Origin: Parvularia atlantis
Taxonomy: Eukaryota > Opisthokonta > Rotosphaerida
Assembly (NCBI GenBank): GCA_943704415.1
Contig: CALSCO010002381.1
Location: 1-42,078 of the forward strand
DNA: 42,078 nucleotides
Direction: 5' to 3'
The notes below the pieces were generated by a model that saw only the letters and a program-made list of their open reading frames with translations, searched no databases and had not been told where the DNA came from. The position numbers and the translations under genes are program-made. This document shows, in pieces, positions 39,235-42,078 of this stretch (its first letter is position 1; each line of letters begins with the position of its first letter).

Positions 39235-40545
39235 ATGTCGGCCGCGAGGACCGAGTTTGACGCCGCGGCGGCGTGGGCCAACGTGACCCAGACCGTGACC
39301 CAGTCGGCCAACGCCGTCGTGGCCACCGTCGGCTGGCCCGCGCTCGCCGGCACGGCGGCGGCCGGCCTGCTCGTGCTCGCGCTGCTCGACCGCCTGCTCC
39401 GCGTGGGCGGCGCCGGCGCGAGCACGGTGCCGGGCAAGCAGAACCTGGCGCTGTCGTTCTTCAAGGTGCGTGGCGCGTCTTGCCCCGCCGGCGGGCGTGA
39501 CAGATCTCGCGGACGCGCGCGCGCGCGCGCACAGATGCTGTGGGAGTTCCGCGGGCGCGACCTCGTCGCGTTCCTGGACGAGCACAAGCGGCTGTTTGCC
39601 GAGGCCAAGCGCACGGGCGACCACGCGGCCGTGACGTCGCACTTCTACGACCTGATGGGCGCGTTCATCGCGATGTACTACGGCCCGTGCTTCCACTTCG
39701 CCCCGCCCGAGCGCCCCGGGCAGACGCGCGCCGAGGCGATCCTGTCGCTGCACGAGCGGATCGCGCGCGTGCTGGGCCTGTCGGCGGGCAAGCGCGCGCT
39801 CGACATCGGGTGCAGCATCGGCGGGATGATCCACGACCTCTCGTTTTTCTCGGGCGCGGGCATCACCGGGCTGACGCTCTCGGGCGAGGAGGTGCGGGAG
39901 GGCACCGAGTGGCTGCAGCGCGACGGGCTCGACCACCACTGCGAGATCGTCCAGGGCGACGCACAGGAGATGCCCTTCCCCGACGGCCAGTTTGACGCGG
40001 CCTACGCGGTCTACGCGCTCAAGTACTTCACCAGCCTGGACAAGGTCCTGGGCCACGTCAACCGCGTGCTCAAGCCCGGTGGCCTGTTCCTCGTGTACTG
40101 CATCATCAAGACGGACAAGTACGACGAGAGCAACCCGGAGCACCGCAAGATCGTGGGCGACTTTGAGTACTCGTGCGGCATGCCCTCGCTGCACACACGC
40201 CAGGCCATGGTCGACGCCGCGGCCCGCGCTGGGCTCGAGTGCGTGACCAAGATGGACATCTCGCGCGATGTGCCGTGGTACTACGAGTTTGACCTGCCCG
40301 CGCTGCACTTCTGCCTGACCAACCCGATCGCCCTCACGGCCCTGTCGGTGCTCGAGAGCATCTTCGTCCTCCCGCGCGGCTTCCGCAACTGGCTCGCGGT
40401 GTTTGTGCGGGGCAACGTCATGGGCATCTACACCGCGGGCAAGATGGGCATCCTCAGCGGCTCGGACCTGATTGTCTTCCGCAAGCCCGCGGCGGCACCG
40501 GTGCCGGTGGGCGCGGCGGCGACGCCTTCGTCGCGGCGCAAGTGA
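39235..40545 (+). CDS. Sterol C-methyltransferase-like SAM-dependent enzyme, membrane anchored
   Basis: Exons 39235-39465 and 39535-40545 give 413 residues. A hydrophobic segment (PALAGTAAAGLLVLALLDRL) near residue 35-55 suggests ER anchoring. The core resembles SMT (ERG6) proteins: FHFAPPERPGQTRAEAILSL, AdoMet motif KRALDIGCSIGGMIHDLSFF, GLTLSGEEV, EMPFPDGQFDAAYAVYALKY, RVLKPGGLFLVYCIIKTDKY, ESNPEHRKIVGDFEYSCGMP, then DISRDVPWYYEF and a hydrophobic SMT-type C-terminal domain. The classic YEYGWG sterol-binding motif before FHF reads instead AMYYGPC, and the glycine loop is GCSIGG rather than GCGVGG. It may therefore methylate a different sterol position or another lipid. Confidence 0.88.
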   Translation: MSAARTEFDAAAAWANVTQTVTQSANAVVATVGWPALAGTAAAGLLVLALLDRLLRVGGAGASTVPGKQNLALSFFKVRGASCPAGGRDRSRGRARARAQMLWEFRGRDLVAFLDEHKRLFAEAKRTGDHAAVTSHFYDLMGAFIAMYYGPCFHFAPPERPGQTRAEAILSLHERIARVLGLSAGKRALDIGCSIGGMIHDLSFFSGAGITGLTLSGEEVREGTEWLQRDGLDHHCEIVQGDAQEMPFPDGQFDAAYAVYALKYFTSLDKVLGHVNRVLKPGGLFLVYCIIKTDKYDESNPEHRKIVGDFEYSCGMPSLHTRQAMVDAAARAGLECVTKMDISRDVPWYYEFDLPALHFCLTNPIALTALSVLESIFVLPRGFRNWLAVFVRGNVMGIYTAGKMGILSGSDLIVFRKPAAAPVPVGAAATPSSRRK

Positions 40546-40908
40546 CCAGTTTGTCTGTGCGTGCGCTCATGTGCGTGCGCTCGCGTGCGTGCGCTCGCGT
40601 GTGTGCGCTCGCGTGTGTATGCGTGGCTACTACCGCGGAGTGCACAGTCGATGAGAAACAACATTCAACATTCACGATCATTCAACAACATTCCAACAAC
40701 CTGTTCAACGGTGGCGTGTGCGCACGTTAATACGTAGCGGCACATGACACGCCGTTTCGCCTTCCGGCGGTCTGGCCAGACGCTAGAGAGAGAGAGAGCG
40801 AGAGAGTTGTCTTTTATTCCTCCAGCATGGCTCTCAGCCATCCGGGTTCGACCACACACAGAGAGATGAGTTACGAGAAAACAACCAACTGAAAACGAAC
40901 AGAAGAGG
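40546..40908. other. Gene-poor stretch with simple repeats
   Basis: No gene is supported. The stretch contains the decamer array at 40557-40626, an A/T-richer segment (about 40650-40700) with repeated ACATTC words that is probably the 3' UTR of the upstream gene, a GA dinucleotide run (40785-40806) and a GGTTCGA box at 40847. Composition is less GC-rich than the host genes. This is the transition from the gene array to transposon-derived sequence. Confidence 0.6.
40557..40626. repeat. GTGCGCTCGC-like decamer tandem repeat
   Basis: About six imperfect 10-12-base units built on GTGCGCTCGCGT lie directly after the methyltransferase stop. They resemble the GTGCG-rich intron sequence of this genome and may be slippage products. 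Confidence 0.8.
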
Positions 40909-41106
40909 GTGGGTGGGCCAGACCCGCTCGCCGGACCAGGTGTCAGGCGAAACGCCGTCGTCGCTCTCCCGAAGGATCACTCCAACAAACCATTTTCATC
41001 CCCAGTGTCGTCCGTTCTGGACGCCCAAGCACGCGACCCTGTAGCACAAGACGTGGCTACCCACCAAGGCCACGATGGGCCCTCGGCCGAACCCATCCCC
41101 GAGGCC

Positions 41107-41459
41107 GTCAAGCGCTACGACTCGCGCCTCATCCGCGACCGCCGCGGCAACTACTACCTTGCCGTCACGCTCCCGCTCGAAGTGAAGCCCGTGCCCGAGC
41201 ACCTGCGCAACCCCAACGGCGTGCCTGAGCGCACGGCTCCTATGGATCCTGGTGTCAGGACCTTCCAGACCATCTTCAGTCCGAACGGGCGCGTCGACAC
41301 GCTGTTCCGCCTCGATCGTCTGCAGGGCAAGATCGACTCCAAGGACACATGTGCCCGCGAGCGCTACCTCCTCCGCCGCGTCGCCGCGCGCATCCGCGAG
41401 CAGATCGAGAACAGGGTCGACGACGTCCACCGCAAGCTCGCAAAGCACCTGGTCGAGAA
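41107..41459 (+). pseudogene. Fragment of a Fanzor / IS607-type TnpB-like RNA-guided nuclease
   Basis: One frame, open from 40909 without an ATG, becomes recognisable at 41107. It reads RYDSRLIRDRRGNYYLAVTL, the strand segment before RuvC-I in TnpB-like proteins, then MDPGVRTFQTIFSPNGRV, the RuvC-I motif with its metal-binding Asp (codon 41245-41247). Next are FRLDRLQGKID, RERYLLRRVAARIREQIENR and VDDVHRKLAKHLVEN, the helical stretch between RuvC-I and RuvC-II in IS607-type TnpB and Fanzor. In relatives a Gly- and Asp-containing segment of roughly ten or more residues separates the first two blocks, and it appears to be missing here. Similarity ends exactly where the putative LTR begins (41460). 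RuvC-II, RuvC-III and the zinc finger lie outside or are lost, and no N-terminal domain is visible. It is broken as it stands. Confidence 0.8.
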
Positions 41460-41642
41460 TGTAAGACTTCGTGGTTCGTAAGCGACGGAAGACACACAAC
41501 ACAGGGGGTGGGGCACGGTTTAAGAGGGGACTGGGCGGTGGGTGACGTAGGCCGAGATGGCTGAGGTAAGCGGGGTCGGGGCTGACGTAGGCCGAGATGG
41601 CTGAGGTAAGCGGGTGAGGTAAGACGATGACGAGAGATGACA
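41460..41642 (-). repeat. Putative LTR (TG...CA, 183 bases) of the adjoining chromovirus
   Basis: Read on the minus strand the segment begins TGTCATCTCTCG and ends CGAAGTCTTACA, a standard TG...CA terminus. It sits immediately after the pol-type coding sequence, where a 3' LTR belongs. Inside it a 32-base unit is present twice (41543-41574 and 41583-41614) at 40-base spacing. The partner LTR is outside the window, so the boundaries are inferred from the termini and from the abrupt end of the Fanzor similarity. Confidence 0.65.
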
Positions 41643-42078
41643 TGCCGCGCCTTATCCGAGCGGGTGTTCGCGGTCGTACGCGTCGGTGAAGGTGCGCGGC
41701 AGCCGGCTTCGCGGCTCCCAGGTGTCGTAAGATGCGTCGTAGCCGGTCCAACGGACGAGGTAGCGGTAGCGGAAGCCTCGGCCGGCCCGGCGGCGGCCCA
41801 GCAGTTGGTCAATGTTGAAGTAGCCCGCTGGCGGTGGGTCCGAGTCGGTCTCGGTCGGTGTGTCGGGATGATCATCCGCCGGCAGTTCGGGTTCTCGGGC
41901 GGGCCGGGAGACACGTCATCGGCGAGGTGTGCGGCACGGGCGGACGCGGGCTTGAGGCGTGTGACGGGCACGAGTTGCGTGCGATCAGAGTCGTTGAGGC
42001 GGATTTTGTAGTTGAGCGGGCCGACGCGGTCAACGATCGTCCAGGGGCCGGTCCAGGGCGACTGCAATTTGCGCGAAG
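41460..42078 (-). mobile_element. Ty3/gypsy chromovirus fossil, 3' end only
   Basis: The minus strand carries the C-terminal part of an integrase (GPWTIVDRVGPLNYKIRL, about 41998-42064) and a chromodomain (about 41700-41820, with FNIDQLLGRRR, RYLVRWTGYD and DTWEPRSRL), followed by the putative LTR. That order is the 3' end of a chromovirus. The rest runs past the window edge. The visible part looks broken, with about one break. Still-recognisable domains and a legible LTR suggest a moderately young insertion, but age cannot be set without the second LTR. Confidence 0.85.

What the first reader, a model, noticed from the sequence alone, without database searches (positions are those of the whole stretch)
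41107..41459. Fanzor (eukaryotic TnpB-like) nuclease fragment
The segment MDPGVRTFQTIFSPNGRV, followed by the Arg-rich helix and VDDVHRKLAKHLVEN, is the RuvC-I neighbourhood of IS607-type TnpB/Fanzor proteins, which are known RNA-guided DNA nucleases in Acanthamoeba and other eukaryotes. The catalytic Asp codon is intact. The fragment lies in gene-poor, repeat-rich sequence at the end of an otherwise orderly gene array, as expected for a transposon-borne gene. Full copies elsewhere in this genome could be a new Fanzor lineage with its own guide RNA.
Basis: partly seen in the sequence, partly recalled or inferred. Interest (0 to 1): 0.85.

Follow-up and report, generated by a model that had tools for sequence, protein, structure and literature searches.

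The report
Broken Fanzor2 gene from IS607-like transposon
A short piece of a Fanzor gene (a eukaryotic relative of the RNA-guided DNA cutter TnpB) lies here, cut off by a retrotransposon; it is a dead remnant of a bacterial-type jumping gene that has left many shortened copies in this GC-rich eukaryote's genome.

Summary
Window 41080-41459 (+) encodes about 126 residues of a Fanzor2/TnpB protein with the RuvC-I aspartate intact (DPG, codon 41245-41247). A profile of 120 relatives gives E = 4e-29, the only significant hit among 646 window frames.

It is a relic. Its N-terminal part is replaced by the left end of another element (40631-41000) and a 78-bp piece shared with contig C560. RuvC-II, zinc ribbon and RuvC-III are cut off at 41460 by a 183-bp LTR of a minus-strand chromovirus.

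The genome holds its source: an IS607-like family with a MerR-HTH/serine-recombinase TnpA, a Fanzor2 with the alternative-glutamate motif, and a conserved non-coding right end that could encode the guide RNA. 40 places were scored for each end. No complete copy was found, but contigs break inside the element, so intact copies cannot be excluded.

A second, TIR-flanked family with a Fanzor1-like tail is also present; its pieces are joined to the IS607 family at three kinds of junction. A new member of a known kind; the junctions are the most interesting part.

The parts
39235..40545 (+). host gene upstream: SAM-dependent methyltransferase of the CMAS/Methyltransf_11 type (neighbour, not part of the element)
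   Evidence: Methyltransf_11 1.2e-18, CMAS 1.3e-13; PDB relatives are methyltransferases
40631..41000 (+). left end of a second dispersed element (TIR transposon whose other copies carry a Fanzor1-like C-terminal ORF)
   Evidence: 35 further matched stretches in the genome, e.g. C524 92%, C495 89% (37 rows less the window itself and C560, which matches only 41001-41078); window 40631-40695 recurs inverted at the right end of the C162 copy: 53 identical, 8 mismatched, 6 gapped columns
41001..41078 (+). 78-bp stretch 96% identical to contig C560; joins the TIR-element end to the TnpB piece; reads TAG where C560 reads TCG
41080..41459 (+). Fanzor2/TnpB fragment: stretch before RuvC-I, RuvC-I with catalytic Asp (codon 41245-41247, DPG) and the following Arg-rich helix
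   Evidence: profile E 4.3e-29; 93-94% protein identity to copies in C533 and C141; alignment A1
41456..41459 (+). AGAA, inferred 4-bp target-site duplication (only one side is visible)
   Evidence: a 4-bp duplication GTAT flanks the solo LTR in C533; the other side of this insertion lies off the contig
41460..41642 (-). 183-bp LTR (TGT...ACA) of the chromovirus, inserted in the TnpB gene
   Evidence: 98.9% identical to a solo LTR in C533 with TSD GTAT
41652..42076 (-). 3' end of a Ty3-type chromovirus: integrase C-terminal domain (about 41948-42049) and chromodomain (about 41691-41819); runs off the contig
   Evidence: PF22938 5.8e-7, PF00385 4.9e-10; no second match of 41646-42078 in the assembly

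Best explanation
The fragment is a dead piece of a Fanzor2 gene from an IS607-like transposon family of this eukaryote. The family's layout, put together from partial copies, is: left end ACCGT(G/A)GAGACC; TnpA with a MerR-type helix-turn-helix followed by a serine recombinase domain; Fanzor2 (DPG in RuvC-I, E six residues before the first CxxC, zinc ribbon, RD in RuvC-III); roughly 130 bp of conserved non-coding right end; terminal AAGAGGCG. No TIRs or target duplications were seen. By analogy with studied IS607 and Fanzor2 systems (inference), TnpA moves the element through a circular form. Fanzor2 plus an RNA read from the right end into the flank would cut the emptied site, so that the element is copied back. 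Shortened derivatives that keep both ends could be moved in trans (inferred). The window copy was joined to the left end of a TIR element and a 78-bp filler (seen in the contig), and cut by a chromovirus insertion at 41460 (ends seen, order of events inferred). It has no function.
For: Profile hit and DPG. Of 120 relatives 117 carry DPGxRTF, 120 E-x6-CxxC and 115 the full Fanzor fingerprint. Ten same-genome copies carry ESYTSKTCGWC. 40 right-end matches scored of 59 candidates and 40 left-end of 56. TnpA: Resolvase domain 1.5e-6 in C55 and four PDB matches, one named an IS607 family transposase (IS1535), the others ISC1904, ISC1926 TnpA and a serine recombinase; MerR 4.1e-4 in P0002. Sharp ends with unrelated flanks: left end found in 23 of 29 loci searched, right end in 18 of 22. 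Shortened copies with both ends: C67, C339, C141, C62. LTR with TSD and uninterrupted paralogues. Relatives with organism names are fungal or insect, and the best PDB match of a full-length relative is TnpB-like protein L79, which I recall as mimiviral.
Against: No assembled copy seen holds a complete TnpA or a complete Fanzor2. The layout is a composite of broken copies. The right-end RNA is unproven: fold z-score -1.91 with 12 of 200 shuffles as good, 0 of 37 consensus pairs with compensatory change, and no Rfam family above threshold there. A shared GG core was not established: 11 of 22 left ends read GG before AGACC, 8 AG and 3 TG (C86 set aside). MerR in P0002 is below its curated cut-off. 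The junctions at 41001 and 41079 lie near the end of one contig and could be misassembled.
Confidence: 0.87

Rival explanations
1. The TnpB piece is cargo of the TIR element: a Fanzor2 captured by a eukaryotic cut-and-paste transposon (a Fanzor2* in the sense of PMC10711439), later hit by the chromovirus.
For: The TIR element's left end lies directly upstream, and such captures are described in PMC10711439 (passages). No IS607 left end or right-end core was found in the window with up to 5 errors (one 18-base right-end look-alike with 4 errors lies inside the LTR at 41512).
Against: The right TIR cannot be seen (contig end). No second copy with the same junction was found. The TnpB is 93-94% identical to copies in C533 and C141, which carry the IS607 left end, and it begins mid-gene, so it would be a broken capture.
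Confidence: 0.2
2. It is a bacterial or giant-virus TnpB, present through contamination or a viral insertion.
For: TnpB/Fanzor2 genes of this clade also occur in large viruses and cyanobacteria (PMC3627910, PMC10711439; passages). Two IMG/VR contigs encode relatives at 41-43% identity to P0003.
Against: The contig is eukaryotic (poly(A)-binding protein with RRMs and MLLE, GH63 glucosidase, chromovirus). The right end alone was scored on 40 contigs. Relatives named as fungal and insect proteins are among the closest 120.
Confidence: 0.03
3. A chance or low-complexity frame in GC-rich DNA.
For: GC-rich DNA gives long spurious frames: 215 ORFs of at least 100 aa in the window. Library E-values are modest.
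Against: Profile E 4.3e-29, the only significant one of 646 frames; 93-94% identical copies elsewhere.
Confidence: 0.01

Closest known systems
Fanzor2 in eukaryotic IS607-like elements (ACa-1/-2 of Acanthamoeba castellanii, ISvMimi, ISvAR158; Bao and Jurka 2013, PMC3627910, passages read)
   Same: DPG RuvC-I, alternative glutamate, C4 zinc ribbon and RD motif; IS607-type TnpA; no TIR or TSD
   Different: no intact gene assembled here; many shortened copies; the host is an unnamed eukaryote whose window is about 70% GC
Pro-Fanzor TnpBs of IS607 elements, mostly cyanobacterial (PMC10711439, passages read)
   Same: DPG plus alternative glutamate; IS607 TnpA
   Different: here in a eukaryotic genome beside LTR and TIR elements; relatives with organism names are eukaryotic
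Fanzor2* captured by TIR transposons (Chloropicon, molluscs; PMC10711439, passages read)
   Same: Fanzor2 piece next to the end of a TIR transposon
   Different: only one end is visible and the gene piece is truncated; capture as a unit is not shown
Fanzor1 in TIR DNA transposons (SpuFz1, PMC10432273; PMC3627910; passages read)
   Same: the second family has TIRs and a tail with WNRDVNAARN
   Different: only C-terminal pieces were seen, with the glutamate/TS motif altered in C520

Membership tests
Fanzor2 | RuvC-I with DPG | tested here: met
   MDPGVRTF at 41242-41265; 117 of 120 relatives have DPGxRTF
Fanzor2 | alternative RuvC-II glutamate, E six residues before the first CxxC | tested here: met
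   met in ten same-genome copies (ESYTSKTCGWC in C538, C569, C357, C323, C113, C507, C28, C576, C339, C541) and 120 of 120 relatives; C63 reads ESFTSKTA; absent from the window copy, which is truncated
Fanzor2 | complete D-E-D triad and zinc ribbon in one open frame | tested here: not met
   window copy truncated at 41459; no single match runs from RuvC-I to RuvC-III. So: a Fanzor2 relic, not a working Fanzor2
Fanzor2 | omegaRNA/reRNA from the right end of the element | tested here: inconclusive
   conserved non-coding right end but no covariation, weak fold score, no expression data
Fanzor2 | RNA-guided DNA cleavage | not testable with these tools
   needs protein and RNA
IS607 family | TnpA with N-terminal HTH followed by a serine recombinase domain | tested here: met
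   MerR 4.1e-4 in P0002 (below its cut-off), Resolvase 1.5e-6 in C55 (above its cut-off); PDB matches ISC1904, ISC1926 TnpA, IS1535 and one serine recombinase (that the first two are IS607-type is recalled); HTH-like end, then recombinase start, in one frame in C55. Only partial genes assembled
IS607 family | no TIRs, no target-site duplication, little target specificity | tested here: met
   flanks of C67, C339, C141, C62 show no duplication, by eye; flanks unrelated
IS607 family | crossover at a GG dinucleotide at both ends | tested here: inconclusive
   GG lies near both ends, but before AGACC only 11 of 22 left ends read GG, 8 read AG and 3 TG (C86 set aside)
Fanzor1 (second family) | E-x6-CxxC and RD tail in a TIR transposon | tested here: inconclusive
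   PF07282 2.8e-4 (below cut-off), WNRDVNAARN present, relative P0123 has NEFRTSITCSRC; in C520 the glutamate/TS stretch is altered
Chromovirus (Ty3 type) | chromodomain after the integrase C-terminus, before the 3' LTR | tested here: met
   layout of chromoviruses recalled

The most novel reading that the evidence does not exclude
One genome in which an IS607/Fanzor2 family and a TIR/Fanzor1-like family exchange parts. In contigs C415 and C520 the IS607 left end plus the TnpA helix-turn-helix is joined, at the same junction but with different left flanks, to the Fanzor1-like tail. This composite has therefore apparently moved as a unit. PMC10711439 reports that no Fanzor1 appeared to be encoded in IS607 transposons, so this could be the missing intermediate, caught in the act, between the Fanzor types and their carriers.
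Probability: 0.15. Interest if true: 0.65.

Novelty: new member of a known kind. Interest (0 to 1): 0.4.

Why it matters
It adds a host and a high-copy family to the eukaryotic IS607/Fanzor2 elements, with clear ends that tell where to look for the guide RNA and the target motif. If the joins with the TIR family are real, this genome would let the proposed passage of Fanzors between transposon types be read directly from sequence.

Tried and rejected
Small indels as scars of Fanzor cutting: the IS607 copies show about one indel per substitution, but so do the controls. Ratios: IS607 left halves 1.16 (19 copies, 161 pairs), right halves 0.93 (10 copies, 45 pairs), LTR-like repeat 1.0 (4 copies, 6 pairs), TIR-element end 1.94 (10 copies, 39 pairs). 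So this is not specific to Fanzor elements; idea dropped. Of 22 left-part sequences prepared, 20 were aligned (C61 and C337 were not found by their pattern); C86 was left out of the count, and pairs with fewer than 80 matching bases were skipped there.

Covariation in the right end: 16 copies, 37 pairs, 0 compensatory; the copies are too alike to test. Two Rfam matches in L077 1-500 (Flavi_TBFV_SL6 at 68-110, 23.5 bits against a gathering score of 38.3; mir-2518 at 441-500, 23 against 61) are below threshold, outside the non-coding right end, and taken as chance. Rfam found nothing in the window at gathering scores.

Microhomology at internal-deletion junctions: looked at by eye only, not counted, so not claimed.

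C560 (ORF MAAAAAAQRRPFWTPK...) as the missing Fanzor N-terminus: no Pfam support (best 0.098); left open.

A scan of GTDB genomes confirmed one weak relative, in a Burkholderiales bin. No structure prediction and no tree were run.

Full report
What was checked. The window is a whole contig (C574, 42,078 bp) of an unnamed 16.25-Mb, 616-contig assembly. It is about 70% GC and eukaryotic: it encodes a poly(A)-binding protein with RRM and MLLE domains, a GH63 glucosidase, a protein kinase and a SMUBP-2-type helicase. The finding lies in its last 1.5 kb.

The protein piece. Frame 40870-41478 (+) holds the reported peptide. A profile made from the 120 relatives P0003-P0122 hits this frame at E = 4.3e-29 over residues 71-199, and the next best of 646 window frames at 0.014. 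Pfam and NCBIfam agree weakly: OrfB_IS605 3.1e-4 and guided_TnpB 3e-6, both below the curated cut-offs. Aligned with relatives, the piece starts just before the conserved YDSRL, holds RuvC-I (MDPGVRTF, Asp codon 41245-41247) and the Arg-rich helix, lacks about 12 residues that relatives have after RuvC-I, and ends before RuvC-II. The DPG motif, with a glutamate six residues before the first zinc-ribbon cysteine, is the published Fanzor fingerprint (PMC10711439, passages read). Among the 120 relatives, 117 have DPGxRTF, 120 have E-x6-CxxC and 115 the whole pattern. The 120 are the best-scoring of 1372. Those with organism names are fungal (Diversispora, Lipomyces) and insect (Lygus) entries. 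The best solved structure for a full-length relative is TnpB-like protein L79, E 2.6e-28.

Why this copy is dead. On the right, the match to other copies stops at 41459. From 41460 to 41642 follows a 183-bp repeat with TGT...ACA ends, 98.9% identical to a repeat in C533. There it is flanked by GTAT on both sides and interrupts a sequence that other copies hold uninterrupted, so it is an LTR with a 4-bp target duplication. Beyond it, on the minus strand, lie a chromodomain and an integrase C-terminus: the 3' end of a chromovirus that runs off the contig. On the left, 40631-41000 is the end of another dispersed element, and 41001-41078 is a 78-bp stretch otherwise matched only in C560. The residues VRLRGS and those before about 41080 are therefore not TnpB.

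The family it came from. A protein search of the genome gave 8 matches including the window itself, the best two others at 93-94% identity. P0002, a database protein that joins an IS607-type HTH to the TnpB C-terminus, gave 57 matches. A query of the non-coding right end gave 40 scored matches from 59 candidates at 89-100% identity; a left-end query gave 40 from 56 at 85-100%; both include the query's own place and are lower bounds. In 17 of the 20 stretches fetched the contig begins or ends there, the sign of a repeat that the assembly could not cross. The left end (GAGACCTTTTCGCGC...) was recognised in 23 of 29 loci searched, with ACCG within ten bases before it in 21 of those 23. The right end (AAGAGGCG) was recognised in 18 of 22 loci, with unrelated flanks (five chance rows disregarded). 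Of the four right-end misses, C569 carries a variant end, TATGAGGCG. C67 (about 560 bp), C339 (about 528 bp), C141 (about 817 bp) and C62 (about 506 bp) have both ends and, by eye, no duplicated flank. Pieces of TnpA show a MerR-type HTH and a serine-recombinase domain in the IS607 order; four PDB chains match: ISC1904, ISC1926 TnpA, the IS607 family transposase IS1535, and a serine recombinase. That IS607 elements lack inverted repeats and target duplications and have an inverted domain order is stated in the abstracts of PMC6188088 and PMC4058570, of which I saw only the beginnings.

How it probably works. Seen: the anatomy above. Inferred from studied systems: TnpA excises and inserts the element; the right end is transcribed into a guide RNA that reads into the flank; Fanzor2 cuts the emptied site so that repair copies the element back. 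Shortened copies keep both ends and the right-end sequence and could be moved by proteins made elsewhere. The guide RNA is not established: the fold is only moderately stable (z -1.91; 12 of 200 shuffles as good), 16 copies show 0 compensatory changes in 37 pairs, and Rfam has no match there above threshold.

A second family and odd joins. The element whose left end lies at 40631-41000 has inverted ends: window 40631-40695 against the far end of the C162 copy gives 53 identical, 8 mismatched and 6 gapped columns. Its tail encodes ...TCCQCHSAM...WNRDVNAARNIAYLWKCYMAG, PF07282 at 2.8e-4, below the cut-off, with 27 matches in the genome including the query itself. The only database relative found, P0123 (JGI, 41% identity), has the intact NEFRTSITCSRC form. 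No PDB match. In C415 and C520 the IS607 left end and HTH run into this tail at the same junction (523 identical, 9 mismatched, 24 gapped columns between the two), although their left flanks differ. In C63 a piece of the same element, inverted, adjoins the Fanzor2 C-terminal part. With the window, that makes three kinds of junction between the two families. PMC10711439 found no Fanzor1 in IS607 elements but did find Fanzor2 in TIR elements (passages). The joins could also be nested insertions followed by deletion, or misassembly near contig ends.

What is known in print. Bao and Jurka (PMC3627910, passages) listed Fanzor2 in IS607-like elements of eukaryotes and viruses, including Acanthamoeba, and described internally deleted Fanzor1 copies in Chlamydomonas. 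Four searches of the open-licence library showed no title on shortened IS607/Fanzor2 families in a eukaryote; one search listed 40 of 82 papers and one search listed 15 of 38, so this is a weak statement.

Verdict. A real, well-supported Fanzor2 relic belonging to an abundant but, as far as assembled, broken IS607-like family: a new member of a known kind.

Noticed in passing
L110 (C415:1-575) and L111 (C520:1-715): IS607 left end plus TnpA HTH joined to a Fanzor1-like tail at the same junction in two places with different left flanks
   Followed up: partly
window 40631-41000; L087 (C162), L083 (C524): A second Fanzor-bearing family: TIR element with a Fanzor1-like C-terminal ORF, 27 protein matches in the genome including the query
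   Followed up: partly
L063 (C26:56072-56637) and L042/L050 (C566:12314-12457): Two further, diverged Fanzor lineages, one with ALDLGVRTF and a frameshift, one with a stray zinc ribbon (TRTCGVCG...DRDVNGARN)
   Followed up: partly
IS607, LTR and TIR repeats of G000: Dispersed repeats differ by about one indel per substitution (0.93 to 1.94) in the repeat types compared; unexplained, possibly a trait of this genome or of its assembly
   Followed up: partly
IS607 copies, just inside the left end and about 8-12 bases inside the right end: Short variable insertions at nearly fixed subterminal places of both ends (e.g. C520, C32, C302, C365, C569)
   Followed up: no
L083 (C524), first 500 bases: AT-rich tandem array of TTTCTAGGGAAATGAC in an otherwise GC-rich genome
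   Followed up: no
P0002 (862-bp ENA contig): Open 222-aa frame that fuses the IS607 TnpA HTH to the TnpB C-terminal half without RuvC-I; looks like a deletion product with an intact frame
   Followed up: no
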